Positions 32,866 to 62,302 of a stretch of DNA of 64,000 nt are shown here, one piece after another (the first letter of the stretch is position 1; each line of letters begins with the position of its first letter). Both the position numbers and the translations under genes were made by a program. Below the pieces are notes generated by a model, which was not told the DNA's origin, searched no databases, and saw nothing but the letters and a program-made list of their open reading frames with translations. The stretch is from Orobanche coerulescens (Eukaryota > Streptophyta > Magnoliopsida > Lamiales > Orobanchaceae). The stretch spans positions 10,587,001 through 10,651,000 of the forward strand of contig CM065804.1 in assembly GCA_033398695.1 (NCBI GenBank), written 5' to 3'.

Positions 32866-33246
32866 GGGGGGTGCACCAGCAACGCATCAGTTTTCGCGAT
32901 AAGTTACTCGGGGCTCAAGAACCAGTTCCAAATAGAGAACGTGTTGATTTATTGGCAAAAAATTTGTTCAAAATCGAGCTTGAAGAGGGGGATAGGTTGA
33001 AACAAAAATGCTGAAAGCATCTTGGAGGAGTTGTGGATACCATGGAAAGATGCAGTTATCGTTACACTCTTAGGAAAGACACTAGGCTATCTGACAATGA
33101 AGGACAGATTCCAAGCCACATGGAGGCTGGCAGGGGGAATGGATATGATCGATATAGGAAGTGGCTACTTTGTGGTTAAGTTTGACATGGCAGCAGATAG
33201 GGAGAAGATTATATATGAAGGACCTTGGATGATTTTTGATCATTAT
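32866..33246 (+). pseudogene. LINE L2 ORF1, DUF4283 domain (middle part)
   Basis: ISFRDKLLGAQEPVPNRERV, NLFKIELEEGDRL, then after a small frameshift LEELWIPWKDAVIVTLLGKT, LGYLTMKDRFQATWRLAGGM and VKFDMAADREKIIYEGPWMI. This is the DUF4283 domain of plant LINE ORF1 proteins. The domain is cut at FDHY by element H and resumes at 61707 with VAVRPWTPDF, with ATTAT on both sides. Confidence 0.85.
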
Positions 33247-34566
33247 TGTTTGGTATATTTTGAGTAATATTTTTATTAGTATTTTATGTATATAATTGTG
33301 TGTTTTGTGTGATAATTTATTCGTTTTACCATATATTTATATTATTTCATTTTATTAGAAATTTCTATAATTTTGTGTTATTTTTGGATAATTAATTGGA
33401 ATTAAATTATATCTGCAGTTAACCAACCCAGACAAGAGATCAATTGGTTCAAGGACGATATTTTTCCAAAATTCAAATACGATCCATGGTCTCATTTTAT
33501 TGGTCTCGTCGAGATGATAGTTTTAAAAAACATTCATCCGAATCCGAGTTCGTATGAAGAAGTTATGACCGTCGAAGGACAATTAAATAGATGACCATAT
33601 TGCGCCACGTGTCAACACCCGATTGGATCGAATTCAACTCTGTCCGATGTCATCCATGACATCAGCTGACTTAGCAGCCGTGAAATAATTGAGGGTGGGA
33701 TTTTAAACTTGTAAAAATTATTATTTTATTAATTTTGAAGTAGTATAAATAGGGGATGAATGTGTAGTGTTTTGGAGAGGAGAAAAAAGGAGAAAAAATA
33801 GAGAGATATTATTGTAAGGGAGAGAAATAAAAATATTATGTAATAAAATTATATTTGAGTAATAATATTATGAAATATTTGTTTATTTGTGTTGTTATTA
33901 TGAGTGAGTAATTTTCTTTTCAAGGTTATGATGAAACCATGTCTATATTATTATTAATATTTATATAATAATTCCAAATAAATATTTTTAACGATTATGA
34001 TTTTCGCTTCAATAGGAGAATATTATTTCATCAATTATATCACGTATTTTTGATAGTTATAAATTCCCCATTGCTTTGTGATTATTGATATTAGTTAATT
34101 TCTTTGATTATTTGTTTTCCGTTAAATTGGATACATGTAATGCTTAGAAATTACATTTTTCAAGCGAAAGAAAATCTATATTTGAATTATAATTTTGTAC
34201 TTATTGTCCTATCTATAGGGAAATAGTGAGATTGATTTCAGAATCTATTCCCTGAATTTCTTGGAATTAAAATATAAATTAAATAATAAATAGACATTGG
34301 TGGATTCTAAACCCTAGTAAATTATTTAAAATCAATTTATCTAAAATCTACTTAAAAATTACTAGTTATTTAATACAATTATTATAACATTCCAATATCA
34401 AATTTTTTGGGACTATGTTAGAATTTAATTTAATTTGGTTCAAAACGATAGGAATAATTTGACTTCACTATTATAGTCCTCCCTGTAGAATCGACCTTGC
34501 ACCGCATATCTACATCGAATAAATCGTGCGCTTGCGAGTATTAGACTAAAGAATCAACCAACAACA
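33247..34566 (+). mobile_element. Element H 5' LTR
   Basis: 1320 bp, highly similar to 60371-61706. It contains a G-box-like CCACGTGTC (33605), the inverted repeat GATGTCATCCATGACATC at 33646-33663 and TATAAATA at 33744-33751. A duplicated-looking GAGGAGAAAAAAGGAGAAAA stretch follows TATA. Confidence 0.9.
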
Positions 34567-35923: not shown

Positions 35924-35928
35924 AGATT

Positions 35929-37217
35929 TGTTAGGCGTATTTTTATACGCTTATTTATCATTATTTTGTAGTATTTTGGTGAGTGAAATTGTCTAAATGA
36001 GCCTTTAATGCCTTAATTTTGTATGATTGACAGGAAATTGAAGTCCGGGAGCTAAAACGAAGCAAAACGGGCGAAAACGGCAAATCTGGACTATGAGCCG
36101 CGGCACAAGGAAGCGGCCGCAAGACAGAAGACACCCAACCGAAGGCGAGTAATCGTACTGTGTCGGCAGCCTGTGAGCCGCGGCACAGAAGAAATTGAGG
36201 ACGCCCAGGCATCCAGCTGAAGGCTCTGTGCCGCGGCACACTTGGCGGCTTTTGGTTGTCCACGCGAATTAGGGCCGTTTCGAAGCCAATTTTCGACCTA
36301 CGGATACGGACACGATTTGGAGGATATGCTGAGCTATAAATAGGGTTTAAGACCCTAATTAATGATCTTTGGATCTTTTAATCTTTTGGAGCTTAAGCTT
36401 GGAGACGGCAGAAGAAGAGGGAAGCAGAAGACTTCAAGGGCAGAGGGCGGAAGCTGAAGAACGGAGGAATCCGAGCTTCATCTGCGTTTGATTTTTATGC
36501 TTTCATTTATCTATTCTGTATTTTCAATTATTAGTATGTCTGGCTAAAGCCCTAATCTAGGGTTTTGATGAAACCTATGTTTTGACGAATTTCTTGAGAT
36601 TATCCAATTAATTACCTTTTTATTAAGTTTTCCCCAATCGTGTTTAATGCTTGCAATTATCTGGCCAATAGTTGTATTGATATAATCATTCACTTCGAAT
36701 CGGGAGAGGAGATTTGGTGAGGAACTATTGGTGAGAACCGTTTTATTCTGTGAGATAGGAATATACTCATAGGAACTACGTGGCCTTTGGGAGATTTTAT
36801 GCTTTTCGCCTATTGACGAATTAATTCACCTAGGGATAGAGTGCGTTATTCGCCTTTAGATAAATCTATTGACCTCGGGAGAGGCGGTAGAATATATTAG
36901 CAATCTCCGCCTTTAATGAATTGGGAAAATTATTTATTACGGATAATCGAGAGTAAATTCGGATAAACTGAGGTGGATTCAGAACCCTAGACTTATTCAT
37001 CATTTGATTTATTTTATTCAAGCCATCGTTTTCTACTAGTCTTTTAGTTATTCTTTTAGTTATTCATTGCAAAATCCCAAATTCGATTGTTCAAATAAAA
37101 TTGGAATACACAAAAATCGGTAGTTAGAGATTCAGTCCTCGTGGGAACGATACTCTACTTATCACTTTATTACTTGTAAACGATGACGTGCACTTGCGTG
37201 TAAGAAATATCGCAACA
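35929..37217 (+). mobile_element. Element D 5' LTR
   Basis: 1289 bp. U3 palindromes at 36100-36240, TATAAATA at 36335-36342, ATGTCTGGCTAAAG after the likely transcription start, then GGGAGAGG repeats. The 3' LTR is about 30 bp longer, mostly from differences within the palindrome array. Confidence 0.9.
36096..36342 (+). promoter_or_regulatory. Element D U3 promoter: GTGCCGCGGCAC palindromes plus TATA box
   Basis: GAGCCGCGGCAC, GCGGCCGC, GAGCCGCGGCAC and GTGCCGCGGCAC between 36096 and 36242, then TATAAATA about 95 bp downstream. The 3' LTR has five copies (43246-43430) with TATAAATA at 43519-43526. Confidence 0.7.
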
Positions 37218-37359
37218 AGTTTTTGGCGCCATTGCCGGGGATTGAAATTTTCTAATATCGATTTAAGTATTTCCAGTCTTAATTTGAACGTTTTATTTTT
37301 ATTTTTGTGTATTTAATTTCGTTTGTTTGTTTTTCCTTTCAGGACCTTTCGTGTAGTGC

Positions 37360-39942
37360 ATGAGAAAACTCGGTAACGAAGGCCTACTACCTTTGGATAC
37401 CGAGCTCGAGCGCACTCTAAGAAGGAAGAAGAAGGAGAAAAGAGAGTTGCAGACGACGGTCAACATGGCCGAGAATATCGAAGTCCAAGGAGGAGATAAC
37501 CAAGTGCGGCAAGTTCAACCGGAACTAGCTCTTCGAGATTATGCCATGCCGCAGATCACTGCTAATTTTTCGGGAATTCGGCGTCCCACTATCCAAGCCA
37601 ATAATTTTGAGATCAAGCCCGCTATTATTCAGATGGTGCAGGCGAGCCAATTCTGTGGACTGCCGAATGACGACCCGAATGCCCATATTGCTTCTTTCCT
37701 TGAGATATGCGACACGTTCAAGACCAATGGTGTCACCGACGATGCCATCCGATTGAGGCTTTTCCCTTTCTCTTTGAGGGATAAAGCAAAATTTTGGTTA
37801 AATTCCTTACCGCCGGGGTCGATTACAACATGGGGGGGGGGGGGTGGGTTAGCGCAAGCCTTCCTTGCCAAATTCTTCCCACCTGCTAAGACGGCGAGGT
37901 TGAGAAACGAAATAACCACCTTTGGTCAGTACGATATGGAATCGCTCCACGAGGCGTGGGAGCGATATAAAGATTTGCTTCGAATATGCCCTCATCACGG
38001 CCTTCCTGATTGGCTCCAGATTCATACGTTCTATACTGGTTTGAGTGCTTCTACACGCACTCTCGTGGATGCGGCCGCTGGTGGGGCCTTGATGGGAAAG
38101 TCTATGGCAGAGGCACACTCGCTTTTGGAAGATATGGCCGCAAATGCGTACCAATGGCCATCGGAAATATTGACACCGAAGAGAGTTATGGAAGTTTCAA
38201 GTAATGACCCGATTTCCACTTTGTCAGCTCAAGTCGCCGCTTTGACCCAATAGCTCCAGGCATTTTCGCACGCACCTTCCCCCGTTACCATTGAGACATG
38301 CAATTGGTGTAACGGATCACACCCGAGCGCGGAGTGTCAAGTTGGAAACCCGTTCGAGCAACATCAGATGGAGCAGGCTCAATTCGTGGGAAATGGAAAT
38401 CGGCAGAATAACCCGTACTCCAACACTTATAATCCGGGGTGGCGCAATCATCCCAACTTTTCATGGAGAAACGGACATAACTCACACCAGCCCCCGTTCG
38501 CTCAGAATCAACAGCAGCCCCCTCCCGCTCCCAAAGTGTCTCTCGAGGAAGCACTTGCAAAATTGGCGGCAAATACGAGTCAATTTATGACCCGTACTGA
38601 AGCTACATTGCAAAATCATTCCGCTTCCATTCGGAACTTGGAGGTCCAGCTAGGCCAAATTGCTAATGTGTTGACAGCTCGCCCGGAGGGAGCATTGCCG
38701 AGTACAACAGAGACAAATCCTAGAGAGAGTCTAAATGCAATCAGCTTAAGAAGTGGGAAAGAGGTGCTGGATCAGCCCGAGCGGGGTAAAAAGAAGAAGG
38801 AAATTGAGGAAGAGAAGGATTTAAAGCCAGAGGAGTCGAAGGATTTGAAACCTTCAATAAAGTTGCCGGATAACTCGAAGACATGTGTGTCCCCCGTCCC
38901 GTTTCCGCAGAGATTACAGCAAAGAAGGGCGGACAAACAATTTTCCAAGTTCCTTGATGTGTTTAAAAAGCTTCACATAAACATTCCGTTCGCCGACGCA
39001 TTGGAACAGATGCCGAGTTACGTTAAGTTCATGAAAGAGATATTATCGAAGAAAAGAAAGCTTGAGGAGTTTGAAACGGTCGCCTTGACAGAGGAGTGCG
39101 GTGCAATTCTTCAAAAGAAGCTCCCACCTAAATTGAAAGATCCGGGAAGCTTCAACATACCGTGCACCATGGGGAATCTTTCTTTTAATAAGGCACTATG
39201 CGATCTTGGTGCTAGTATCAACCTCATGCCTCTGTCGATTTTCAAAAAGCTGGATATTGGGGAAGCCAAGCCAACAACAGTCTCCTTACAATTGGCGGAT
39301 CGATCCATCAAATACCCAAGGGGAGTGATTGAGGACGTTTTAGTCAAAGTTGACAAGTTCATCTTTCCAGCCGATTTCATCATACTCGACATGGAGGAAG
39401 ATGATGATATTCCAATCATCTTGGGACGACCATTTTTAGCGACTGGCCGAACCCTTATAGACGTGGAAAAAGGGGAGTTAACTCTGAGGGTCCAAGACGA
39501 GCAAGTTACTTTTCAAGTATTCAAATCGTTTCCATGTCCCGGAAGTGTTGATAAAAGGTCACAAATTGAAAGTGTAAATGCCGTTGAAAGAGGAAAGCAC
39601 CGAAAACATCGTCGGTGGGAAAATTCAGATTTTGTGTTAAATGGTCCAAGTCTTAAGAAGGATGTAGAACGAGTGGCGTTCCTCGAGCATGAGGACAAAT
39701 CTGCTGCAGTCTTGAGTGCGTTTGTGAAGGAGGAGAGTAAGCCGAAAGCCCAGCGGAAAATTAGTCATGGAAAAACCGGGTGTTTCGGGAAGTTGTTTAC
39801 GTCGAAACCTTTCCGCAAACAACATTTGATGACCGAACCGAAAGTCGAATCGCTGACGACCAATGGTCATAATTTTAACAAATATATGAACGGTTCGATG
39901 AACGGGGCGGAAATCAAATGGAGTTTGCGAAAAGCGAACTAA
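37360..39942 (+). CDS. Element D gag-protease polyprotein, one in-frame stop
   Basis: Two open stretches are in the same frame, separated only by TAG at 38251-38253 (37360-38253 and 38254-39942), about 860 aa in all. Gag domain: NAHIASFLEICDTFKTNGV, RLFPFSLRDKAKFWLNSL, HEAWERYKDLLRICPHHGLP. A zinc knuckle-like CNWCNGSHPSAEC follows the stop, then a Gln/Pro-rich linker, a Lys/Glu-rich segment and the protease ALCDLGASINLMPLSIFKKL, QLADRSIKYPRGVIEDVLVK and ILGRPFLATGRTLID. A G13-like run lies at 37833-37845. The C-terminus is basic. The stop is one transition from CAG. Best-preserved gag-pro in the window. Confidence 0.85.
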
Positions 39943-40160
39943 TATTTTCCAATAGGTCCGGCTGAAGACTATAAACTTAACGCTTCTCGGGAGGCAACCC
40001 GAGTTCGTAGTTGTAGATTTTTGCGTTCCTTTATTTTTCTTGCATCTTTGATTTCTATTTTTTCTTCATTTTTGTGCTTCAATTTGCTTCTGCCTCTCGC
40101 TTTTAACGAGTTCTGCTCAAAATGCCGTGCGTAAAAGTCCTGTGGAAGAAATCGACGCGT

Positions 40161-40410
40161 CGAGCCGCAAGATGTATTGTGAGCCACGGCACACATAAAT
40201 CGAAGGAGGCTAAACCAATCGTACCTTGTGCCGCGGCACGGCATAAATGAGCCGCGGCACACTTGAGCACCGAGCCGCGGACACGTAATTCGTGCCGCGC
40301 ACACGACAAAACGAGCAAGGTGTAAAAGGGATCAGACTCGTGCCACGGCTCACTTTAGCTGTGCCGCGGCACACTATGCGGAATCTGAAAGGCCCTGGTA
40401 GCTTATAATT
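40161..40410 (+). promoter_or_regulatory. Element D internal palindrome array upstream of its second ORF
   Basis: About seven copies or near copies of G(T/A)GCCGCGGCAC lie between 40181 and 40372, the same motif as in the LTR promoter. TTATAATT follows at 40403-40410, and the ATG of the second ORF is at 40440. This suggests an internal promoter, which is inference. Confidence 0.55.
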
Positions 40411-40439
40411 CTCAATCGTCCGAACACCCAGGACTGATT

Positions 40440-41843
40440 ATGGCGAGAACAAAGAAACTGAGTAAGAGAGCTAGGACCCAGTCATCCCCCACTCGAGGGG
40501 AGACCTCTCGTGGTCGGGCCGAGGCGGAGGGGCACCGCTTTCGGACTCGAAATTCACAAGATATTCAATGAAAAGATCCGGCCACGACCGCTTATTCCAG
40601 AGAGGGGATTCACTCCGGCTCCTCGGGACGGGAATTGCTCGCTATGATTGATGAGATAGGGTGGGCTGATTTGCCGCACCCGAGCTGCCAGCTTATCTTG
40701 ATTGCGGCAGAGTTCTACGCCATGCACCGCCGAAGCACATTCAGCAGGTGGCATACGTTGCCGTCATTAGAGTCTCGGACTCAGTCGATGTCCGAGGGTT
40801 ACAGCTGATTTCTCCACTACCGCTATTCGGAGGTCAGTTTGGGCTTCGGTGGTTGATGAGTCGGCCTATGACCGAGTGATGACCGGCCTCACGAAGGAGG
40901 CCCGCTCGAGACCATTGCACAGCCGACATCGACCGGGAGCAGCGAGCACGTGGTTCTTCCACTTTCCACTTCAGAGCTCGCGCCTCGGTCGGCCTCGGCG
41001 TGCACGGCTTTATTTTATCTGCGCACGCATTGACCCCACCTCCCGGATCCGTCTGCTTTTCTCTCCCGCGCCCGGACACTTTATGCTATCACTTCCGGGC
41101 TGCGTTTCGATGTGGCCCCCATCCTGGTCCGATCTATCTTCCAGTGTATCCAGGGGGGGGCAAGACGGGGTTGAAGCACCCCTCTCTCATCTGCGCTTTG
41201 TGCCGGCAGTCGGGGCTGACGTGGTCAGACGACGAGCCGATGCTTGCCCCCCAGGCCCCGATCGACCACCGCATCATATCACACTTTGACCAGTGGGGAG
41301 GAGCGCCGGCGCACGCTCGGGGGAGAGGATTTCTGCTAGAGGAGGCCCACGAGGGGTCCCCTGAGCCGCTTTTGTTGACACATGGAGATGCTGGCCCGCC
41401 ACCCGACAGAGCGAGGTTGCAGGAGTTGTTTGATGGGCTGAGGGAGGATCTGAGGAGAGAGAGAGGAGCTGAGAAAGGAGACGAGGAGAGAGAGAGAGAG
41501 AGATGAGTTGAGGATAGAGAGGGAGAGCTTGATGGCTGCCATGCGGGAGGAGCAACGGACGGAGCGGGAGAGCGTTATTGCTGCCGTCAGAGCCGAGATG
41601 CGAGAGCAGGCCCGCCGGGCCAGCCGACTAGAGGCGAGGCGTCTTGCTGCGAGGGATGCTTATCATCAGGAGCACCTTGCCGCATGGACGGCCTATATCA
41701 TGCATCCCGACGGGCCATTTATTGCACCCGCCCGGCCAGCCACACCACCCTCCTCACCGGATGATGCCGCACAGGCTCCCGAGCTGACCGGAGGGGAGTA
41801 CTTGACCTTTTACTTTTATTGCATATCATTTTTTGTCCATTGA
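40440..41843 (+). pseudogene. Element D second (env-position) ORF, degraded
   Basis: ATG at 40440 opens the basic MARTKKLSKRARTQSSPTRG. After frameshifts, RPLIPERGFTPAPRDGN, ELLAMIDEIGWADLPHPSCQ and LILIAAEFYAMHRRS follow, then RARLYFICARIDPTSRI and GLKHPSLICALCRQSGLTW, ending in an Arg/Glu-rich coiled coil (41430-41640, with a GA microsatellite at 41456-41502). The pattern resembles the plant-specific domain found downstream of pol in Athila-type elements (Putative plant transposon protein family, from memory). Multiple stops. Confidence 0.55.
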
Positions 41844-41858
41844 GGTCAATGTACGTCC

Positions 41859-43078
41859 TAAGTTTGGGGGGGGGGGGGGTTTACTTTCAGTTGCTACATT
41901 CATTGCTGTACTTTATTTTATTGCTGTACTTTATTTCGTTGCACTTTTCATTACTTTGCGTAAATTTTTTTTTTAGATAGCCTTGCTTGTCTTAGTTTTT
42001 CTTTATTCGTGAATTTTTCGTGCTTCTATTTGTGTGATACTGATGTTACGACACTGTTTTTCTCTCTGAAGAAACGGTCGAGTTTTAGTCGAGTTGTAGT
42101 CAATTATTTCTGTTCTGCTTAGTATTCATTTAGGTCCAAAATTTTTCGTGATTGTAGAGGTCTTGGCAGATAAGAGACGATACATACTTGTTTTAAAATC
42201 ACCGTCAATACGTTTGGTTACATTTTTCTGTTAGTTAGTCGTCCAGTTATATTAGTCGTGTTGGCACTTAGATTGAGTTTAGAGTCGATCAGTTTTTCCC
42301 AAAAGTCGAGATAATGTTCTATGATGGGAAGTCTAGTAACCGGGGGCATTCGCGTGACCCGTTGTTTACTCTCGCGTAAAACGACGACCCTGATTAGACT
42401 AGTGATTTAGATATTTCACATGTGCCAATGATAGGGAGCCTAGTAACTGGGGGTATTCGCGTGACCCGCCGTTTACTCTCGCGTAAAACGGCGACCTTGA
42501 TTCGAACATGCGGAAATTATATATTCGAGTTGTTTCTCCGCTGTAGACGGGAACTTAGTAACTAGAAGCATCCATGTGCCCCATGAGTGTCTTTTACGTC
42601 AAACGGTTTTCCAATACATGAGAATGGAAGTTCCACCCTAGGATTATCCCGATGAAACATCCCGATATCCTAACCTAGTGGTCAACTCGAATAAATTTCT
42701 TGAGCATATATATATAAGGGATTACTGTCCGAGGTTTATTTGTTATGAAACTCGTGAAAATTGTGCCACTAGACTGTGGAACGGGACGAACTAGCTTGTT
42801 TATTTTAGCCTTTCATATTGACGGTCGATTTGACTCACGTTTTGTTAATCTTTGAGCTGGATTTTCTTCATGAACGAGTGATTAGGACTGAACTTGATTA
42901 CTTTGCGGAATCATTATTCTGAGTGCAGCTTGCTATTATGACACTTGTATTATTTAGAGAGAATTACAGGATAGTATTGATTAGGTTGAACACTATGAGT
43001 TGCACGATGATTCACGACATTCTTTTATTGAATTTAATTCTTTTTGCTTGAGGACAAGCAGAGGCTTAAGTTTGGGGG
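41859..43078 (+). other. Element D conserved 3' region between two polypurine tracts
   Basis: CTAAGTTTGGGGGGGGG at 41858-41879 and CTTAAGTTTGGGGGTA at 43065-43080 bracket about 1.2 kb of non-coding sequence, nearly the same as 19199-20200 of element C (opposite strand). It includes two units with GTGACCCG(T/C)(T/C)GTTTACTC and GCGTAAAACG. The second tract directly precedes the 3' LTR. Confidence 0.7.
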
Positions 43079-43082
43079 TATT

Positions 43083-44401
43083 TGTTAGGCGTATTTTTAT
43101 ACGTTTATTTATCATTATTTTGTAGTATTTTGGTGAGTGAAATTGTCTAAATGAGCCTTTAATGCCTTAATTTTGTATGATTGACAGGAAATTGAAGTCC
43201 GGGAGCTAAAACGAAGCAAAACGGGCGAAAACGGCAAATCTGGACTATGAGCCGCGGCACAAGGAAGCAGCGCCGCGGCACAGGAAGACACCCAGCCAAG
43301 GCGAGTAAATCAGTACTCTGTGCGCGGCCTCGCCTGTGAGCCGCGGCACGAGAAGAAATTGAGGACGCCTGAGCATCCAAGTGAAGGCTCTGGCCGCGGC
43401 ACAGGTTTAGTGCGCCGCGGCACACTTGGCGGCTTTTGGTTGTCCGCGCGAATTAGGTCCGTTTCGAAGCCAGTTTTCGACCTACGGATACGGACGCGAT
43501 TTGGAGGATATGCTGAGCTATAAATAGGGTTTAAGACCCTAATTAATGATCTTTGGATCTTTTAATCTTTTGGAGCTTAAGCTTGGAGACGGCAGAAGAA
43601 GAGGGAAGCAGAAGACTTCAAGGGCAGAGGGCGGAAGCTGAAGAACGGAGGAATCCGAGCTTCATCTGCGTTTGATTTTTATGCCTTCATTTATCTATTC
43701 TGTATTTTCAATTATTAGTATGTCTGGCTAAAGCCCTAATCTAGGGTTTTGATGAAACCTATGTTTTGACGAATTTCTTGAGATTATCCAATTAATTACC
43801 TTTTTATTGAGTTTTCCCCAATCGTGTTTAATGCTTGAAATTATCTGGCCAATAGTTGTATTGATATAATCATTCACTTCGAATCGGGAGAGGAGATTTG
43901 GTGAGGAACTATTGGTGAGGACCGTTTTATTATGTGAGATAGGAATATACTCATAGGAACTACGTGGCCTTTGGGAGATTTTATGCTTTTCGCCTATTGA
44001 CGAATTAATTCACCTAGGGATAGAGTGCGTTATTCGCCTTTAGATAAATCTATTGACCTCGGGAGAGGCGGTAGAATATATTAGCAATCTCCGCCTTCAA
44101 AGAATTGGGAAAATTATTTATTACGGATAATCGAGAGTAAATTCGGATAAACTGAGGTGGATTCAGAACCCTAGACTTATTCATCATTTGATCTATTTTA
44201 TTCAAGCCATCGTTTTCTACTAGTCTTTTAGTTATTCTTTTAGTTATTCATTGCAAAATCCCAAATTCAATTGTTCAAATAAAATTGGAATACACAAAAA
44301 TCGGTAGTTAGAGATTCAGTCCTCGTGGGAACGATACTCTACTTATCACTTTATTACTTGTAAACGATGACGTGCACTTGCGTGTAAGAAATATCGCAAC
44401 A
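43083..44401 (+). mobile_element. Element D 3' LTR
   Basis: 1319 bp, starts TGTTAGGCGTATTTTTATACG (the first 20 bases fold as a hairpin GCGTATTTTTATACG) and ends CGCAACA. Highly similar to 35929-37217, so insertion is fairly young. Confidence 0.9.
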
Positions 44402-44748
44402 AGATTCAACAAGGGATTGATATTTTTCACTCACTACTTTGTTCGATTTGAATAGAGAAAAGCTAAATATCAATCTTGTACAAACTGATTTTGAAAATAG
44501 ATTGAATTTTTGCAAAAAGGCCTCTGTTGTACATGCCGAAGAAAGTTGGATTTTAAGTGCGACCGTTGTGACGCCTCCAACGATCTGGAAGTTCGATCGA
44601 CTATCATAATTTGGTTTGTATGCAAAGTTAAAAAAAATTGAAATATCGGTGAATGCAAGTTTGGCAATGAAATAATAAAGGTCGATTAACGAGAAGAAGA
44701 TTGTCCTTAACTAAAACTGAAGTTCAACAAACAAAACCGATACAAAAA

Positions 44749-45490
44749 ATGGACGAAATCGAAAATCGGAATAATCAAGTTGCAAAAGAGAAAACTTTAA
44801 TAGAATATTTTTCTCCAGTGAGTGCTAATTCTCCCTCTTGCATAGTGTTGCCTACGACTAATGCAACTCATTTCGAACTTAAACCATCAATAATTCAATT
44901 TCTTCCATCTTTTCACGGTTTGGAAAGAGAAGATCCCTATATGCATGTCAAGGAATTTCTCGACATTTGTTCTACTTTCCGATTCCAAAATTTCTCTGAT
45001 GAATCTGTCAAACTTAGATTATTTACATTTTCTCTCAAAGATAAAGCAAAATTCTGGCTAAATTCTCTTCAAGCAAGAACAATTACTACTTGGGACCAAC
45101 TAGTGAATAAATTTCTCGCAAAATTTTTTCCAATATCCAAAACTGATAGTCTTAGAAGAGAAATATCATAATTTTTCCAAAAAGAAAATGAAGAATTTTA
45201 TGAGTGTTGGGAAAGATTTAATGATTTAATCCTTAAGTGTCCCCATCATGGTTTTGAAATGTGGCGTTTCGTAAAATATTTTTATGACGGTTTAACTCCA
45301 AACAATCGCCAATTAATCCAATCAATGCATGGTGGAAAATTTCTTCACCTTATTGGAGACGAAGCTTGGAATGCACTTGAAAATATGTCAATTAATTCAC
45401 AACAATGGAATTCACTCGACTCTAGAGCCAAATCGATGCATACGACCCAAAAAAAGGTGGAATTTACGAGGTTAAACAAGATGTTGAAAT
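44749..45490 (+). pseudogene. Element H gag
   Basis: ATG at about 44749 (MDEIENRNNQVAKEK). The capsid-like domain has ATHFELKPSIIQFLPSFHGL, VKLRLFTFSLKDKAKFWLNS and NKFLAKFFPISKTDSLRREI, then a stop (45169-45171), then ENEEFYECWERFNDLILKCP and HHGFEMWRF. A frameshift near 45480 leads into the next segment. Athila-type gag; inactive. Confidence 0.85.
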
Positions 45491-45521
45491 AAAATCTACT
45501 ATAGATGATTTAGTACGAAAA

Positions 45522-49574: not shown

Positions 49575-49799
49575 CTTAATATGATGAAAATCACTGAACC
49601 GTAAGGTAGAATCCGACTCCGGTTGGTTATATGCCACTCCAAGGTGCTATTCCACTTCAATGATTATTCCCAAGTGATAACCAATAAACAACACCAACAA
49701 AATGTGTTCTAAGTGTGTAGGAGGATATTTCAGCTCTCTGGCCTCTCAAGAATGCAGAATGGTCGAGTAAAAATGTAAGCCAAAACGAGTTGTTGTCCC

Positions 49800-50053: not shown

Positions 50054-50207
50054 CACTAGTTTGCATGAGAAAATTTGCATGTTTCTATACTTATGTACAA
50101 TGATATCAATGCAAGAAATATCATACTCCAATAATCAAAACCACAATTCCGAATAATACAGGGTTTGAATACAGATGAAATACACCGTAATAAATCCGGA
50201 TATTACA

Positions 50208-51291
50208 TATGATGAGCATTTTCTATGACATGGTTGAGCGGTTTTTGGAAATTTTTATGGATGATTTTTCTGTATTCGGGTCTAGCTTTGATGAATGTTT
50301 ACACCACTTAACCCAAGTGTTGGTTAGGTGTAAGAAGAAGAATCTTGTCCTAAACTGAGAAAAATGTCATTTTATGGTTAAGAAAGGAATTGTCTTAGGA
50401 CATGTGATTTCTGAAAAAGGAATTGAGGTAGACAAATCTAAAGTTGATTTAATATCCAGTCTTCCACCCCCACGAACGATTAAAGAAATTCGGTCATTCT
50501 TAGGCCATGCTGGTTTTTACCGTCGATTCATCAAAGATTTTAGCAAAATCTCAAGGCCATTATGTAACTTACTTTCAAAAGACACGCCTTTCGTATTTGA
50601 TGATTATTGTCTAAAAGCTTTTAAGACACTCAAATCTATGTTGAGCTCTGCACCTATCATCAAATCTCCAAACTGGAATCTTCCTTTTGAAATAATGTGT
50701 GATGCATCCGACTATGCCGTCGGTGTAGTATTGGGTCAAAGAGAAAATAAATTGCCAACTGTAATATATTATGCAAGTAGAACTCTAAATGATGCCCAAT
50801 TAAATTATTCTACAACTGAAAAAGAATTGCTTGCAGTCGTTTTTGCCTTAGACAAATTTCGACCCTACTTGATTGGTTCGAAAGTCATAATTTACTCTGA
50901 TCATGCTGCATTAAAATATATTCTTTCTAAGAAACATGTTAAACCTCGCTTGACCCATTGGATTCTATTGTTACAAGAGTTTGACTTAGAAATTCGAGAT
51001 AAAAAAGGTGCTGAAAATATTGTTGCTGATCATTTGTCTAGGCTAATCGTGAATTTTACTGATAAAGAACCTCCCATTAATGAAACTTTCCCTGATGAAC
51101 AACTCATGTCTGTTTCTCAAATACCTTGGTATGCAGACATTGTCAATTATCTTGTCACTGGTAACATGCTATCTCATTGGAATAACCAAGATAAAACAAA
51201 ATTTTTAAACGAAGTAAAAAAATTCTTTTGGGATAATCCATATTTGTTCAAATATTGTCCTGATCAAATCATTAGGAGATGTGTGCCATAA
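50208..51291 (+). pseudogene. Element H reverse transcriptase C-terminus and RNase H
   Basis: FLEIFMDDFSVFGSSFDECL contains the FMDD catalytic box. There is one stop at 50356-50358, then [40 protein letters not shown]. RNase [73 protein letters not shown]. Clearly Athila type. 305 aa open after the stop. Confidence 0.9.
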
Positions 51292-52416
51292 CATGAACAA
51301 CAAAATATCATTTCCTTTTGTCATGATCATGCATGTGGAGGTCATTTTAGTTCAAAGAAAACAACTGCTAAAATTCTGCAATGTGGTTTTTAATGGCCAA
51401 CACTTTTCAAAGATACACATTCATATTGTAGCACATGTGATAGATGTCAAAGATTAGGTCGAATTTCTAAACGAAATATGATGCCTTTAAACCCAATTTT
51501 AATTATTGAAATATTTGATGTTTGGGGCATAGATTTTATGGGACCTTTTCCAATTTCTTTTGGCAATCTTTACATTCTTGTGGCCGTCGATTATGTTTCA
51601 AAATGGGTAGAAGCAATTGCTTGCAAAACAAATGACCACAAAGTCGTGGTAAATTTTTTGAAAGAAAATATTTTTTCCAGATTTGGAACACCACGAGCAA
51701 TGATAAGTCATGGAGGAAAATATTTTTGTAATAAATTTTTGAATCATTTATTTAAAAAATATGGTGTTACACATAAAGTTGCTACTCCTTATCACCCTCA
51801 AACAAGTGGACAAGTTGAAATTTCAAACAGAGAAATCAAACATATTCTTGAAAAACTGTTAACCCTACAAGGAAAGATTGGTCTTTGCGATTGAATGATG
51901 CATTGTGGGCTCCGTACTGGTTTTAAAACTCCCATCGGAATGTCTCCATTTAGGCTTGTCTTTGGAAAACCATGTCATTTGCCTGTTGAATTGGAACATA
52001 GAGCATACTGGGCCATAAAACGATTAAATTTTTCATTAGACATGGCTGGAATTCATAGGAAACTTCAACTAAATAAATTGGAAGAAATCAGAAATGATGC
52101 TTACGATTGTGCAAGGAAATATAAGGATAAAATGAAATTTTTTCATGATAAACACATTTTGAGAAAAACTTTTTCTCCTGGTCAAAAAGTCCTTCTTTTT
52201 AACTCTCGTTTGTTATTATTTCCAGGCAAGTTGCATTCATGATGGTCTGGTCCATTTATTATTCATACGGTTTATCCTCACGGAGCTGTAGAAATTGAAA
52301 ATACAAAAAATGGTAATATTTTTAAAGTGAATGGTCAACGGTTAAAACCATATTTGGAATTAAAATCTTTTGAGGTAGAAGAGGTTCTTCTTAAAGACCC
52401 TGATATTGTGAACTAA
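51292..52416 (+). pseudogene. Element H integrase
   Basis: Zinc region CHDHACGGHFSSKKT...[13 protein letters not shown] (stop at 51392). Catalytic core [60 protein letters not shown]. The usual second catalytic Asp (SDGG) is replaced by His (SHGG at about 51706-51717), so this copy cannot integrate. Frameshift near 51893. The tail ends DPDIVN at 52416. Athila type, no chromodomain. Confidence 0.85.
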
Positions 52417-52535: not shown

Positions 52536-53081
52536 ATGGAACAAACTTTGAAAACAATTGAAAAAAGATTTCTCTTTCTTAGCAAAAAAGTCATTTTGAA
52601 ACTTTATCAAGCCAGAGTTGAAAGGATGAGGTTGCTTATGAATAACAGCATACCTTTTGATATTCGATTCATTATTGAAGCCAAAGTGAGAATAGTGGGT
52701 GAATTCACGGAAACACCAACTAGATTTTTACCAGAGCTTGGAAAAAGTTCATATGTCAAGAAACGACGAGCAAAGAAAATCGCCGTTTGCTACAAATGTG
52801 CTAGGTGGAACTGTGATTCAAGATGTCGATCTTTAGGAATTCCTTCCACAAATAGAGAAGATAAAATTCAGTTCATCAAGGATAGTCTGAATAAGGAGAA
52901 TTTAGATGATATCGAAATTTCTATTGACACGCATCCTAGTGGACTCGTACATTATGGGATTCGATGTTTGTGGAATAAATTCAAACCGGAATATGAACAA
53001 CGTCTTGGGAATCTGACATTAAAAGACCCTGTTTGCCAATTTGTAAGAAAATTGGATGGGAAGCTTCTCCCCGACTCATAG
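52536..53081 (+). CDS. Intact 181-aa ORF of element H: basic protein with a four-Cys cluster
   Basis: Uninterrupted frame 120 bp after the integrase stop. The N-terminal half is helical and basic, then KSSYVKKRRAKKIA (70-83) leads directly into CYKCARWNCDSRC (85-97, CX2CX4CX3C), a probable zinc-binding module. The C-terminal part has no known motif. Basic patch plus Cys cluster recalls the small nucleic-acid-binding proteins of some plant RNA viruses (carlavirus/vitivirus type, Viral_NABP family), but this is resemblance only. It could also be a plant-derived or element-specific RNA-binding protein. Position corresponds to env in other elements. Function unknown. Confidence 0.7.
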   Translation: MEQTLKTIEKRFLFLSKKVILKLYQARVERMRLLMNNSIPFDIRFIIEAKVRIVGEFTETPTRFLPELGKSSYVKKRRAKKIAVCYKCARWNCDSRCRSLGIPSTNREDKIQFIKDSLNKENLDDIEISIDTHPSGLVHYGIRCLWNKFKPEYEQRLGNLTLKDPVCQFVRKLDGKLLPDS

Positions 53082-53384
53082 AAGGCGTTTAAGCCGTTTC
53101 TGAACGTAAAATCAGAGGAAGATGTGAGCCACAATCACAACTACTATACATACACGTGAGTATCTTCACTTTTTGTCGTTTTTTTAGATTTTCTGAATAA
53201 AAAAAGTGATACGCAATCAGTGCATTCATTATTCTATTGAGTAGTTGAAGCGCAATTAACGCGGTCACAGATTTTATAAATCTTTTTACTTTATTTTGCA
53301 TCTATAAATAAACGTTGCAGTTGTTTCTTTCAAACTTGTATTCTTTTCATTTTCTCTCTAAATAATTTTCTTTTTAAAAAAAAA
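53082..53384 (+). promoter_or_regulatory. Intergenic region with a candidate promoter for the LOG-like ORF
   Basis: TATAAATA at 53303-53310 is followed by an 70-80 nt CT-rich, A-rich leader (TTGTTTCTTTC, TTTTCATTTTCTCTC) that ends AAAAAAAAAATGG at the start codon. Looks like an ordinary plant core promoter and 5' UTR. None of the LTR palindromes occur here. Confidence 0.55.
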
Positions 53385-54041
53385 ATGGAATCATCATCTT
53401 CCGCAAAAAGATTTAACTCCATCTGCATTTTTGGTGGAGCTAGTCATGAAAAAGAGGCTTGCTTTACTGAAGCAGCCCACAACTTGGGTCGTACCTTAGG
53501 AGAAAAATGCATTCATGTAGTTTACGGAGGAGGAAGTCTAGGATTAATGGGACGTGCTGCTGCTTCTGCCTATATGGAAGGAGTAAAAGTGTTGGGAATC
53601 ATTCCAAAACCTCTCGCTGAAAGTAAAATCACCAGAGCAACCATTGGAGATGAGTTCAGAGCTGTGAATATGCAAGACCGCATAACTCACATGATAAATA
53701 ATGCTGATGTCTTTATCACCCTTCCCGGTGGTTTTGGCACTCTTGAGGAACTTTTTCATGTGGTTACCAGAGCACAGCTAAATGTTCATATGAAACCAAT
53801 AGGTCTGCTAAATGTCAATGGTTTCTTCGATGGTTTACTATCTTTCATCAACTACTCTTCTGAAAAAGGTTTTATTTCTGAGCGTGCTAAACGAATCATA
53901 GTAGTTGCAACAACACCAGAAGAGCTGATCAAAAAACTTATTGCATTTGTTCTTGAATCAGACCCAGCTCTAGCTAATATTGTTTGGATGGAAGATTTCA
54001 CTGTGCGGAAATGCAAAATTGATACATTCCTTTCCCTCTGA
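53385..54041 (+). CDS. LOG: LOG-like cytokinin riboside 5'-monophosphate phosphoribohydrolase, carried by element H
   Basis: 218-aa intact, intronless ORF. LOG enzymes hydrolyse cytokinin riboside monophosphates to free active bases in the cytosol (one-step activation). Motifs: ICIFGGAS (13-20), VVYGGGSLGLMG (45-56), MQDRITHM (96-103, conserved Arg99), and the family signature LPGGFGTLEE (113-122), then AQLNVHMKPIGLLNVNGFFD. Length fits plant LOG proteins (about 210-240 aa). Differences from classic LOGs are FGGAS for FCGSS, RI for RK after Arg99, and VVTRAQ for the usual WAQ, so activity is uncertain. Host plant LOG genes normally have several introns, so this looks like a retroposed or captured cDNA. 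It lies between integrase and 3' LTR of H and is open while gag and pol are broken. Confidence 0.85.
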   Translation: MESSSSAKRFNSICIFGGASHEKEACFTEAAHNLGRTLGEKCIHVVYGGGSLGLMGRAAASAYMEGVKVLGIIPKPLAESKITRATIGDEFRAVNMQDRITHMINNADVFITLPGGFGTLEELFHVVTRAQLNVHMKPIGLLNVNGFFDGLLSFINYSSEKGFISERAKRIIVVATTPEELIKKLIAFVLESDPALANIVWMEDFTVRKCKIDTFLSL

Positions 54042-57949: not shown

Positions 57950-59265
57950 TGTTGCGATATTTCTTACACGCAAGTGCACGTCATCGTTTACAAGTAATAA
58001 AGTGATAAGTAGAGTATCGTTCCCACGAGGACTGAATCTCTAACTACCGATTTTTGTGTATTCCAATTTTATTTGAACAATCGAATTTGGGTTTTGCGAT
58101 TAATAACTAAAAGAATTACTAAAAGACTAGTAGAAAACGATAGCTTGAATAAAAGAAATCAAATGATGAGTAAGTCTAGGATTTTGAATCCACCTCAGTT
58201 TATCCGAATTTACTCTCGATTATCTGTAATAAATAATTTTCCCAATTTATTGAAGGCGGAGATTGCTAATATATTCTACCGCCTCTCCCGAGGTCAATAG
58301 ATTTATCTAAAGGCGAATAATGCACTCTATCCCTAGGTGAATTAATTCGTCAATAGGCGAAAAGCATAAAATCTCCCAAAGGCCATGTAGTTCCTATGAG
58401 TATATTCCTATCTCACAGAATAAAACGGTCCTCACCAATAGTTCCTCACCAAATCTCCTCTCCCGATTCGAAGTGAATGATTTAATCAATACAACTATTG
58501 GCCAGATAATTGCAAGCATTAAACACAATTGGGAAAACTCAATAAAAAGGTAATTAATTGGAAAATCTCAAGAAATTCGTCAAAACAAAGGTTTCATCAA
58601 AACCCTAGATTAGGGATTTAGCCTGACATACTAATAATTGAAAATACAGAATAGATAAATGAAAGCATAAAAATCAAACGCAGATGAAGCTCGGATTCCT
58701 CCGTTCTTCAGCTTCCGCCCTCTGCCCTTGAAGTCTTCTGCTTCCCTCTTCTTCTGCCGTCTCAAAGCTTAAGCTCCAAAAGATTAAAAGATCCCCCAAG
58801 ATGATTTAATTAGGGTCTTAAACCCTATTTATAGCTCAGCACATCTCCAAATCGCGTCCGTATCAGTCGGTCGAAAACTGGCTTCGAAACGGCCCAAAAT
58901 CCGCGCGGAAAACCAAAAACCGCCAAGTGTGCCGCGGCGCACTAAACCTGTGCCGCGGCACATCGCCTTCAGCTGAATGCCTGGGCGTTAATTAATTCTT
59001 CTGTGTCGCGGCTCACAGGTGTCATGCGGCCACAATCTGATTTACTCTGCGCTTGGTGGTGTCTTCTGTCTGCGGCTCTGCTTCCTTGTGCCGCGGCTCA
59101 TAGTCCAGATTTGCCGTTTTCGCCCGTTTTGCCTCGTTTTAGCTCCCGGACTTCAATTTCCTGTCAATCATACAAAATTAAGGCATTAAAGGCTCATTTA
59201 GACAATTTCACTTTCCAAAATACTACAAAATAATGATAAATAAGCGTATAAAAATACGCCTAACA
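57950..59265 (-). mobile_element. Solo LTR of the D family
   Basis: 1316 bp, minus orientation, TGTTGCGATATTTC...CGCCTAACA. Target duplication TCAAA at 57945-57949 and 59266-59270. Contains four GTGCCGCGGCAC-type palindromes (58929-59100) upstream (in its orientation) of TATAAATA at 58826-58833. Confidence 0.9.
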
Positions 59266-59270
59266 TCAAA

Positions 59271-60370
59271 CATATTGTGTTCATTCTAGAACTTGCTCAT
59301 TTATACATTTCGAGACTACATTCATAAACTCTTGCATTAAGATGATAAAGCCAATTAGGATGAACCCCTTGTTGGCTTATATTTTCCCACCCATTACATT
59401 TTATCCTTAGAAGCCCCATTGAGCCTGCGCCTATTTCTTTGATCAAGCACATTACTTTAGCCATTATCCATTCTTGTTGATGACTCATCAATTTGCACCC
59501 TCTAGTCAAAGATTTAATTGTGAACTAGATGTGTGACAAATAGGGGCCGATGTTCATAAGAGTATTGTGGAGATTAAGAGATTTTGTTGAAAGTGAAAGG
59601 GTGTGAAGTACATTGGAGTATTGAATCGAGAAAAAAATATAAATAAAGGCCAAAAAAAAGGAAAAAAAAACGGCCTGAAAGAAAAAAAAGCGGGAGGTCA
59701 AGTGCGAAAATCATCACTATATATACATAAAATAGCACTTGAACTATCCATTGAGTGATACATAATTCCTTGCAGAAGATCCATTGCATACTTTTTCTTA
59801 CACAAGAGTATGACCTTACCAGATGAATATTCAATTACCATGTACAGAATAACTTGGGGATGATGGTTTGAGAGTTTTCATTACAGAAGGGGGGTGTTGA
59901 TTGTTATTTGTAGGATTTGTTATGCATCTAAATTCACAATTGATCTTGGCTAGCAAACCTCATAATTTTCCCTTTATCCTACCCTTACCCAAAACCACGT
60001 TACAACCAAAAGAAAGACTTTTTGATTTATGCATGAGTTTATTTTTAAGTAGTGGAGATTTGATTTTTGACCAAGCATATGGTAATGACACATTATGCTT
60101 TGATATGAGTGAACTCTTCTCGAATATCCCGTATATACACTTGAGTGAAGAGTGATATCCACTGTGAGTGTATTGAATCTTTTGGCATTCGATTCTCAAT
60201 GAAGTTGTTAGAATTTGGTGCGGCATCATATTTTTCTCTAATCTCACTTGGGTCATGATCACTTGTTCTTTCTTGATATTGGTTTTGTCATGATTTTTTC
60301 AGCATATGAGTATTATAACTCGGGTATAAGATTTGCCCGAGGACGTGCAAAAGATAAGTGTGGGGGAATT
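59271..60370 (+). other. Element H 3' non-coding region and polypurine tract
   Basis: 1.1 kb without a recognisable gene. An 84-aa open stretch at 59901-60155 resembles nothing I know and is probably chance. The polypurine tract AAGTGTGGGGGAATT (60356-60370) directly precedes the 3' LTR. Confidence 0.6.
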
Positions 60371-61706
60371 TATTTGGTATATTTTGAGTAATATTTTTAT
60401 TAGTATTTTATGTATATAATTGTGTGTTTTGTGTGATAATTTATTCGTTTTATCATATATTTATATTATTTCATTTTATTAGAATTTTCTATAATTTTGT
60501 GTTATTTTTGGATAATTGATTGGAATTAAATTATATCTGCAGGTTAACCAACCGGTACAAGACAGATCAATTGGTTCAAGGACGATATTTTTCCAAAATT
60601 CAAATATAGTCACGATTGGTCTCATTTTATTCGTCTCGTCGAGACGATAGTTTTAAAAAAAAAAATCATCCAAATCCGAGTTCGTATGAAGAAGTTATGA
60701 CCGTTCGAAGGACAATTAAATAGACGGACCATATTGTGCCACGTGTCAACACCCGATTGAATCAGAAATTCAACTCTGTGCTGATGTCATCCATGACATC
60801 AGCACCCCTTAGCAGCCGTGAAATAATTGAGGGTGGGATTTTAAAATTGTAAAAATTATTATTTTATTAATTTTGAAGTAGTATAAATAGGGGATGAATG
60901 TGTAGTGTTTTGGAGAGGAGAAAAAAGGAGAAAAAATAGAGAGATATTATTGTAAGGGAGAGAAATAAAAATATTATGTAATAAAATTATATTTGAGTAA
61001 TAATATTATGAAATATTTGTTTATTTGTGTTGTTATTATGAGTGAGTAATTTTATTTTACTGGAGTTATGATGAAACCATGTCTATATTATTATTAATAT
61101 TTATATAATAATTCCAAATAAATATTTTTAACGATTATGATTTTCGCTTCAATAGGAGAATATTATTTCATCAATTATATCACGTATTTTTGATAGTTAT
61201 AAATTCCCCATTGCTTTGTGATTATTGATATTAGTTAATTTCTTTGATTATTTGTTTTCCATTAAATTGGATACATGTAATGCTTAAAAATTACATTTTT
61301 CAAGCGAAGGAAAATCTATATTTGAATTATAATTTTGTACTTATTGTCAAATCTATAGGGAAATAGTGAGATTGATTTCAGAATCTATTCCCCGAATTTC
61401 TTGGAATTAAAATATAAATTAAATAATAAATAGACATTGGTGGATTCTAAACCCTAGTAAATTATTTAAAATCAATTTATCTAAAATCTACTTAAAAATT
61501 ACTAGTTATTTAATGCAATTATTATAACATTCCAATATTAAATTATTTGGGACTATGTTAGAATTTAATTTAATTTGGTTCAAAACGATAAGAATAATTT
61601 GACTTCACTATTATAGTTCTCCATGTGGAATCGACCTTGCACCGCATATCTACATCGAACAAATCGTGCACTTGCGAGTATTAGAATAAAGAATCAACCA
61701 ACAACA
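60371..61706 (+). mobile_element. Element H 3' LTR
   Basis: 1336 bp; first dinucleotide TA instead of TG. It carries a perfect 13-bp inverted repeat around CC at 60778-60805 (half-site GTGCTGATGTCAT) and TATAAATA at 60892-60899. Ends CAACAACA before the ATTAT duplication. Confidence 0.9.
60778..60805. promoter_or_regulatory. 28-bp perfect palindrome in the H LTR, 87 bp upstream of TATA
   Basis: GTGCTGATGTCAT, spacer CC, ATGACATCAGCAC. The 5' LTR copy (33646-33663) keeps only the inner GATGTCAT/ATGACATC halves. TGAC-type half-sites recall bZIP sites, by inference. Confidence 0.65.
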
Positions 61707-62302
61707 ATTATGTTGCGGTGAGACCTTGGACGCCGGACTTTATCGCGTCCCAAATCAAGATCAAGACTACCATGGTATGGGTGAGGTTTCCCTTTATTGG
61801 GCTAGAATACTATGATGAAAGTGTTTTAATGGCACTTGGAGCAGCAATAAGCAAACCGATTAAGATTGACATTCGCACCATTGATGCATCCAGAGGCAAA
61901 TTCGCAAGATTGTATGTTTAAATCAACTTGGAGGAACCGGTTGTGGGGAGAGTTTGGTTCAGGAATAGATGGTTCAACGTGCAATACGAAGGTCTTCATC
62001 TTCTCTGTAAAAAGTGTGGACGCTACGGCCACGTTGACTGGAATTGCCCCAAGCCTGCGTCGGTAACAACCCTAGCCGCCGGGAAAGAGTCCAGCGCGGT
62101 TCAACAGGCTGTCACCGACGAGATAATCACGGCGCCCATTAATGCTGGGACGGTTACTGAGAATGAAAATAATGAAAAAATAAATGACTGGGGTCCACTC
62201 CATCATGACTCACTGATTGTAGAAAAAAAGAAACTAAACCAAACCAAACCAAACCAAACATACCCAGTATATCCCGCTCAGAGCGAGTGCAGGGAGGAGT
62301 AG
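61707..62302 (+). pseudogene. LINE L2 ORF1, DUF4283 C-terminus and zinc knuckle
   Basis: It continues from 33246: VAVRPWTPDFIASQIKIKTT, VWVRFPFIGLEYYDESVLMA, IDIRTIDASRGKFARLYV, stop at 61919, then EEPVVGRVWFRNRWFNVQYE and the CCHC-type knuckle CKKCGRYGHVDWNC. Standard plant LINE ORF1 arrangement (DUF4283 plus zf-CCHC). The frame ends at 62302. Confidence 0.85.

What the first reader, a model, noticed from the sequence alone, without database searches (positions are those of the whole stretch)
53385..54041. Intact LOG-like cytokinin-activating gene inside an Athila-type retrotransposon
Element H has an LTR pair, a perfect ATTAT target duplication and restored host frame at its ends, so the LOG-like ORF lies within a defined mobile element, downstream of integrase. 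Its frame is open over 218 aa with the YGGGSLGLMG and PGGFGTLEE signatures, while gag, RT and integrase of the same copy carry stops, frameshifts and a lost catalytic Asp. An intronless gene for an enzyme that releases active cytokinin, riding on a retrotransposon, could alter cell division or meristem state in favour of the element. I know of no described element of this kind, but could not search.
Basis: partly seen in the sequence, partly recalled or inferred. Interest (0 to 1): 0.9.

Follow-up and report, generated by a model that had tools for sequence, protein, structure and literature searches.

The report
Retrotransposon family with own LOG gene
A retrotransposon family repeated hundreds of times in what is likely a broomrape genome carries its own gene of the LOG family, whose known members release the plant hormone cytokinin; the gene shows purifying selection and keeps the catalytic residues, but its changed substrate pocket suggests that it likely acts on a different nucleotide, which would make it a host-manipulating gene carried by a jumping gene.

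Summary
The 218-aa ORF at 53385-54041 is a LOG-type protein inside an LTR- and TSD-bounded Athila-like element. It is a family trait: 256 distinct places match over most of the protein (379 with short-query matches) in a 3.6-Gb, 19-chromosome genome, likely Orobanche. In 13 of 20 copies read, the order is RNase H - integrase - carlavirus NABP-like ORF - LOG. dN/dS falls from 0.92 among near-identical copies to 0.22 between two subfamilies (net 0.17-0.19), as for a gene selected while the element replicates and free after insertion. Related LOGs of Rehmannia, Paulownia, Populus, Malvaceae and Xanthoceras form one clade apart from the sampled canonical LOGs; most carry a basic patch plus a C-terminal LxLxL (EAR-like) tail, altered in Orobanche. 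Catalytic Arg99/Glu122 and PGGxGTxxE are kept, but proposed pocket residues His97, Lys100, Glu125 and Trp129 read Gln, Ile, His and Arg, which argues against ordinary cytokinin activation. A LOG (YgdH) domain in Ty3/gypsy elements was reported before for Citrus and Populus, so the kind is known; the partner ORF, selection, pocket, tail and expansion were not found in my literature searches.

The parts
33242..33246 (.). target site duplication, left (ATTAT)
   Evidence: matches 61707-61711
33247..34566 (+). 5' LTR of the LOG-carrying element
   Evidence: 95.3% to 60370-61707; K2P 0.037, 1320 sites
35926..44406 (+). nested LTR element of another family, inserted in the LOG element (its LTRs 35926-37222 and 43080-44406, 95.5%); not part of the LOG element proper
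44671..45492 (+). gag remnant, split between two frames
   Evidence: PF03732
45426..47291 (+). gag/protease ORF (621 aa stop to stop) with aspartyl protease domain
   Evidence: PF13650
47292..47837 (+). reverse transcriptase pieces (Pfam hit for 47544-47837 only), followed by a stretch (about 47838-50358) that other copies lack
   Evidence: PF00078
50374..51291 (+). RNase H region
   Evidence: PF17917, PF17919; 129 genome rows
51394..52242 (+). integrase core and following part; ISHGG in place of the expected middle catalytic Asp
   Evidence: (PF00665)
52536..53081 (+). second accessory ORF, 181 aa, similar to the carlavirus cysteine-rich nucleic acid-binding protein (PF01623 Carla_C4, PF05515 Viral_NABP)
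   Evidence: Carla_C4 above cut-off in 4 of 4 copies; at least part in 28 of 30 copies, the window's included; 5 of 5 copies of subfamily 2
53303..53312 (+). TATAAATAAA, predicted core promoter of LOG, 82 bp before the ATG
   Evidence: within 120 bp of the ATG in 29 of 30 copies, the window's included; TATAAATA at the same place in 5 of 5 copies of subfamily 2; its block 0.92 identical between subfamilies; blocks from -130 to -11 otherwise 0.64-0.79 save one of 0.99; blocks further upstream, -330 to -140, 0.65-1.00
53331..53332 (+). CA inside a conserved block, predicted transcription start (YR type); inferred
   Evidence: block at -60 to -51, 0.99 between subfamilies
53385..54041 (+). LOG-type gene, 218 aa, intronless
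57950..59265 (-). solo LTR (inverted, TSD TCAAA) inserted in the LOG element
59266..60370 (+). internal sequence before the 3' LTR; found behind LOG in 18 of 20 other copies
60371..61706 (+). 3' LTR
61707..61711 (.). target site duplication, right (ATTAT)

Best explanation
This is a high-copy Athila-like LTR retrotransposon family that carries a LOG-type gene as a fixed accessory gene under purifying selection, and the gene's protein is predicted to be a phosphoribohydrolase whose substrate pocket has been retuned away from ordinary cytokinin nucleotides. Likely history: a spliced LOG mRNA of a plant was captured (inferred: the gene is intronless, and most host LOG-type matches sit in short frames). 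It was likely kept through a large part of eudicot history, since related genes of Lamiales, Salicaceae, Malvaceae, Melia and Xanthoceras form one clade in the sample. Likely working: the gene would be transcribed from its own TATA promoter between integrase and the 3' LTR, apart from the gag-pol RNA. The protein would act in the host cell, in most lineages probably in the nucleus, because of a basic patch and an EAR-like LxLxL tail. By cleaving the base-ribose bond of a 5'-nucleotide it would change the nucleotide or hormone state of the cell in favour of the element. Shown here: gene, position, copy number, conserved catalytic residues, altered pocket residues, tails, dN/dS trend. Inferred: expression, localisation, substrate, benefit. 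The neighbouring carlavirus NABP-like ORF suggests a two-gene host-interaction module (inferred).
Against: No expression, enzyme or localisation data. In 12 matched copies of one subfamily LOG dN/dS (0.55, range 0.35-0.86) is no lower than RNase H (0.52, 0.39-0.73): constraint, but no special protection. Copies were chosen by LOG score, which favours intact ones: 30 were the best rows, 20 were rows without stops, 20 came from the ranking, all but two of them stop-free there. Of five RNase-H-chosen copies absent from the LOG lists, 3 had LOG, all broken, and 2 showed none at the expected place. A fixed-versus-polymorphic count pointed the same way but was not significant (neutrality index 2.78, P 0.08). 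Among annotated Orobanche proteins, fragments included, R99 is kept in only 79 of 93-95 rows and E122 in 86 of 91. The LxLxL tail is lost in Orobanche itself. Ten of 124 non-Orobanche rows keep Lys100. PMC11593424 (abstract and passages) reports wheat LOGs with the same critical residues but different main products, so residues alone do not settle activity. Element context outside this genome was seen only in gene models and one paper. The conserved TATA block lies in a stretch where some blocks further upstream are as conserved. The tree warns of long branches between canonical and bacterial rows.
Confidence: 0.55

Rival explanations
1. The element's LOG still activates cytokinin in the ordinary way (iPRMP to iP) and thereby pushes host cells towards division or meristem fate, where the element multiplies.
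For: Catalytic Arg99/Glu122, Thr119 and Glu121 kept in 67-70 of 70 copies; LOG fold at 1.1 A; ten of 124 non-Orobanche relatives keep Lys100, five of them with the full canonical residue string.
Against: His97, Lys100, Glu125 and Trp129 read Gln, Ile, His and Arg in Orobanche; Lys100 is kept in 0 of 93 Orobanche rows and in 10 of 124 other retro-type rows. PMC4979012 proposes these residues for the adenine/prenyl site and reports near-complete loss of activity when the crucial residues are replaced by alanine.
Confidence: 0.2
2. The protein works mainly as a nuclear adaptor: the basic patch and LxLxL tail recruit TOPLESS-type corepressors and the LOG fold serves as a nucleotide sensor or scaffold.
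For: Basic patch plus LxLxL in 93 of 118 non-Orobanche retro-type proteins, 0 of 92 canonical; residues 203-218 predicted disordered, as short motifs usually are.
Against: The window's own lineage has lost the motif: 0 of 56 have LxLxL, 48 of 56 end in D-x-[FL]-[LI]-x-L; catalytic residues are kept in 67-70 of 70 copies. That LxLxL is an EAR motif is recalled, not tested.
Confidence: 0.15
3. LOG is a recently captured passenger without function, as in many transduplicated gene fragments.
For: Many copies are broken (33 of 150 rows have stops; the three LOGs found in the five copies are all broken).
Against: Hundreds of places, fixed position in the copies read, dN/dS decline with divergence, one clade across the sampled eudicots.
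Confidence: 0.05
4. A host retrogene inserted by chance into one element copy.
For: Intronless; the A-run just before the ATG at first sight.
Against: Same gene, order and spacing in 13 of 20 copies and matches on all 19 chromosomes.
Confidence: 0.01

Closest known systems
YgdH (LOG) domain in Ty3/gypsy LTR-retrotransposons of Citrus sinensis, C. clementina and Populus trichocarpa (PMC9289625: abstract passage and the section 'Screen for Non-canonical Domains' read; it cites Steinbauerova 2011, which I did not see)
   Same: LOG-family domain in a gypsy-type element; Populus proteins fall in the same clade as the window's gene
   Different: In what I read there it is a domain hit only. Here: a likely Orobanche genome, copy number, gene order, NABP-like partner ORF, predicted promoter, selection, pocket and tail changes
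AlkB-type m6A RNA demethylase ORF in Phalaenopsis gypsy elements (PMC9289625, abstract passage and one section)
   Same: Captured enzyme gene kept as an additional ORF of a large gypsy element
   Different: Other enzyme, other plant group; enzyme activity was shown there and is untested here
[quoted passage not shown]
   Same: Position and orientation
   Different: LOG and the NABP-like ORF have recognisable cellular or viral relatives; envelope features were not looked for
Canonical plant LOG, e.g. AtLOG3 (2a33) and AtLOG8 (1ydh)
   Same: Fold, PGGxGTxxE, Arg99/Glu122; 44% and 42% identity
   Different: Pocket residues, C-terminal tail, no introns (introns of host genes inferred), mobile
Carlavirus cysteine-rich nucleic acid-binding protein (Pfam PF01623, PF05515)
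   Same: Significant profile match of the 181-aa neighbour ORF in 4 of 4 copies
   Different: Lies in a retrotransposon; for PF01623 only about 30 central residues match; that such viral proteins can suppress silencing is recalled

Membership tests
LOG phosphoribohydrolase (type I) | PF03641 above curated cut-off | tested here: met
   122.7 bits against 27
LOG phosphoribohydrolase (type I) | PGGxGTxxE motif and catalytic Arg/Glu pair | tested here: met
   (R99 in 67 of 70 copies, E122 in 70 of 70)
LOG phosphoribohydrolase (type I) | LOG fold | tested here: met
Cytokinin-activating LOG (subset) | proposed prenyl/adenine pocket residues His97, Lys100, Glu125, Trp129 | tested here: not met
   Gln, Ile, His, Arg in Orobanche; roles proposed in PMC4979012
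Cytokinin-activating LOG (subset) | release of iP or tZ from the riboside monophosphate | not testable with these tools
   needs protein
LTR retrotransposon | LTR pair and target site duplication | tested here: met
   (pair and duplication in the window's copy; 3' LTR start in 13 of 20 others)
Athila lineage of Ty3/gypsy | RT-RNase H-integrase order | tested here: met
Athila lineage of Ty3/gypsy | no second (archaeal-type) RNase H between RNase H and integrase, which would mark Tat | tested here: inconclusive
   Pfam shows one RNase H region in the ORF before integrase and about 100 nt between the two ORFs; no specific aRH model was run; criterion from PMC6317226 (passages)
Athila lineage of Ty3/gypsy | place in an RT tree | not tested
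   no RT reference set at hand
Conserved additional ORF of a retrotransposon (not transduplication) | present in most copies, same position, under constraint | tested here: inconclusive
   position and constraint met; 'most copies' not shown: among 129 RNase-H-chosen rows 29 have a LOG in the capped lists, and 3 of 5 others tested had one
Carla_C4 / Viral_NABP | PF01623 above curated cut-off | tested here: met
   24.1-25.8 bits against 20.9 in 4 of 4 copies
Carla_C4 / Viral_NABP | RNA binding or silencing suppression | not testable with these tools
   single-sequence model too poor to compare (pLDDT 46.5)
EAR-motif proteins | LxLxL motif | tested here: not met
   0 of 56 Orobanche proteins; 100 of 118 non-Orobanche relatives have it

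The most novel reading that the evidence does not exclude
A plant retrotransposon lineage carries a two-gene host-manipulation module: a LOG-derived nucleotide hydrolase with a retuned pocket and, outside Orobanche, a nuclear TOPLESS-binding tail, beside a protein related to RNA-virus nucleic acid-binding silencing suppressors. It has stayed with plants since early eudicots and exploded to hundreds of copies in holoparasitic broomrapes.
Probability: 0.3. Interest if true: 0.9.

Novelty: new variant of a known kind. Interest (0 to 1): 0.72.

Why it matters
Transposons are seldom found with an enzyme gene that selection keeps for the element's own use. Here the signs of selection, the altered pocket and the neighbouring virus-like ORF make the question 'what does a retrotransposon gain from a hormone-pathway enzyme?' testable with one purified protein and RNA-seq. 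It also warns annotators: many LOG-type genes in broomrape gene catalogues are likely transposon genes and may not make cytokinin.

Tried and rejected
Single-insertion retrogene: rejected. Intactness as proof of function: rejected, because choosing copies by LOG score favours intact ones. Frameshift counts for RT and integrase against this window's frames are not usable, since the window copy itself is the shifted one; only NABP, LOG and RNase H figures are quoted. Fixed-versus-polymorphic test: same direction, not significant; with a looser rule 23.5 synonymous and 11.5 nonsynonymous differences between subfamilies, no P computed. Structure of the NABP-like ORF: single-sequence model too poor, not searched. 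PHROGs gave a DprA-like match for LOG (5e-10) and nothing significant for the NABP-like ORF; PDB search with the NABP-like ORF gave nothing. Literature, ten searches: led to PMC9289625; YgdH + retrotransposon gave that paper alone; carlavirus + retrotransposon + nucleic acid binding protein gave none; EAR motif + LONELY GUY + retrotransposon gave one paper, seen in the listing only, a review-type title on hormonal signalling and chromatin; phosphoribohydrolase LOG + LTR retrotransposon + gypsy gave none; one search found the LOG structure papers; listings showed no title on a LOG ORF in broomrape elements. PMC11963269 was looked at in passages only and not used. Steinbauerova 2011 and the supplements of PMC6317226 were not seen. 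Host LOG intron positions: one last-exon search answered; the companion exon search never got an answer, so introns in host LOG are inferred from short open frames and recall.

Full report

Element. LTRs at 33247-34566 and 60371-61706 (95.3%; K2P 0.037) are flanked by ATTAT. Inside lie gag and protease remnants, RT pieces, RNase H, integrase, a 181-aa ORF and LOG, all in the same sense. This copy is broken: gag is split, RT is interrupted, and integrase has ISHGG where the second Asp of the recalled DDE triad is expected. A nested LTR element, an inverted solo LTR and two further insertions explain its 28-kb span. The lineage looks like Athila: one RNase H region was found and no Pfam match to the second RNase H that marks Tat (criterion from passages of PMC6317226), but no specific model was run and no RT tree was made.

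Whose genome. G000 has 3.646 Gb; contigs C1-C19 are about 138 Mb or more each and C20 has only 5.1 Mb. The nearest named proteins are from Orobanche hederae (93%), O. minor and O. gracilis. I infer an Orobanche species or close kin; n = 19 for Orobanche is recalled.

Copy number and order. Two searches with whole LOG proteins list 256 distinct places; a 48-aa last-exon query adds 123 places whose rows (about 60% identity to canonical LOG) I take as the same type without reading them: 379 in all. Of 129 RNase H rows, the window's own included, 23 have a listed LOG 2-4 kb downstream, 6 more at 4-15 kb, and none within 4 kb upstream. In 20 copies read over 8.1 kb, all picked from rows without stops in LOG, the 181-aa ORF or part of it is in 17, integrase in 15, RNase H in 14, and all four in order in 13. 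In 18 of 20 the element's last internal stretch lies behind LOG, and in 13 the LTR start follows in the right orientation; one more has LTR sequence in the other orientation, and several pieces end before the LTR. Five copies were chosen by RNase H rank among those missing from the LOG lists: LOG was at the expected place in three, all broken.

Selection. Seventy LOG copies (30 best rows, the window's included; 20; 20) fall into two subfamilies (52 and 18). dN/dS is 0.92 for pairs with dS under 0.03, then 0.48, 0.34, 0.27, 0.17 (3 pairs only), and 0.22 for dS 0.2-0.5; the net value between subfamilies is 0.169, or 0.19 with bootstrap range 0.09-0.34 on a 12+12 subsample. This is the pattern of a gene constrained while the element replicates and free after insertion. 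Choosing by protein score could lower dN, but the value near 1 among the closest pairs speaks against a large effect. In 12 matched copies LOG (0.55) and RNase H (0.52) are alike and the 181-aa ORF is looser (0.79), with overlapping ranges. Eight of the 70 have stops and one a frameshift, a figure that the choice of copies flatters. A fixed-versus-polymorphic count was in the same direction but not significant.

Relatives. The LOG genes of Orobanche, Rehmannia, Paulownia, Populus, Reevesia, Diplodiscus, Pterospermum, Melia, Xanthoceras and unnamed ENA/JGI sequences form one clade (30 rows, support 98/93) apart from 17 canonical plant LOGs, and the Lamiales rows group together. The canonical rows are LOG1/3/4-like plus LOG8; other LOG groups were not sampled, so the donor is open, and the tool warns of long branches. 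Element context outside this genome rests on a Xanthoceras gene model that fuses LOG to a gag-protease linker, on clusters of many similar proteins (for example one of 327 member sequences named for Pterospermum), and on PMC9289625 for Citrus and Populus.

Active site and tail. In CgLOG numbering, which coincides with this protein's, R99 is kept in 67 of 70 genomic copies, and T119, E121 and E122 in 70 of 70. Among the annotated Orobanche proteins, fragments included, R99 is kept in 79 of 93-95 and E122 in 86 of 91. The string at 96, 97, 99, 100, 119, 121, 122, 125 and 129 is MHRKTEEEW in 92 of 92 full-length canonical LOGs and MQRITEEHR in 33 of 56 full-length Orobanche proteins; 13 more are printed one-residue variants and ten were not printed. 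PMC4979012 (abstract, passages and the active-site section) gives Arg99 and Glu122 as proposed catalytic residues, Met96, Lys100 and Glu121 as adenine contacts, and Met96, His97, Lys100, Glu125 and Trp129 as a likely prenyl site, and reports that alanine replacement of the crucial residues almost abolished activity, Ser19 excepted. So catalysis looks kept and the substrate retuned. Against reading too much from residues: PMC11593424 (abstract and passages) reports wheat LOGs with the same critical residues and different main products. The C-terminus of non-Orobanche relatives ends in LxLxL (100 of 118), usually behind a basic patch (93 of 118 with both); 0 of 92 canonical LOGs have either; Orobanche proteins keep the basic patch (49 of 56) but end in D-x-[FL]-[LI]-x-L (48 of 56). 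That LxLxL is the EAR corepressor-binding motif is recalled.

Promoter. TATAAATAAA lies 82 bp before the ATG here, within 120 bp of it in 29 of 30 copies, the window's included, and TATAAATA stands at the same place in 5 of 5 copies of subfamily 2. Between subfamilies its block is 0.92 identical; the other blocks from -130 to -11 are 0.64-0.79, except one of 0.99 that holds a YR start site at the right distance; but blocks from -330 to -140 range from 0.65 to 1.00, so conservation alone does not single out the TATA box. An own promoter is predicted, not shown.

Partner ORF. The 181-aa ORF matches Carla_C4 above its cut-off in 4 of 4 copies from both subfamilies. A link to silencing suppression is recalled knowledge of the viral family.

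Host LOG genes. A last-exon query finds 20 better-matching places (61-89% identity; 18 of them in frames of 57-162 aa, two in frames over 300 aa) before the retro-type rows begin. I take most of these as host LOG-type genes with introns, which I could not confirm because the companion search did not complete.

Verdict. The kind (a LOG domain in a gypsy element) has been reported; the anatomy and evolution described here were not found in my searches.

Noticed in passing
window 52536-53081: 181-aa ORF between integrase and LOG resembling carlavirus cysteine-rich nucleic acid-binding proteins, in both subfamilies; a possible virus-to-retrotransposon (or reverse) transfer.
   Followed up: partly
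window 35926-44406 and 57950-59265: A second LTR family nested in the LOG element (full element plus an inverted solo LTR); tblastn of LOG and of the NABP-like ORF on the window finds only the one copy of each, so this nested copy shows neither.
   Followed up: partly
window 63366-63985: Further LTR-like fragment of the nested family, about 79% identical, near the window end.
   Followed up: no
P0201, P0171, P0186, P0194 (Xanthoceras and unnamed sources): LOG relatives of the same type that keep canonical Lys100 and end in a basic patch without LxLxL; possibly the state nearest to the original capture.
   Followed up: partly
G000 C5:148857014 (+) and C5:148857904 (-): Two LOG last-exon matches 0.9 kb apart on opposite strands, each in an open frame of more than 300 aa, unlike the short frames of the other best matches.
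   Followed up: no
public proteins P0002-P0080: Gene catalogues of Orobanche genomes list many of these genes as hypothetical proteins, and two of the listed rows (P0011, P0064) as cytokinin-activating enzymes.
   Followed up: no
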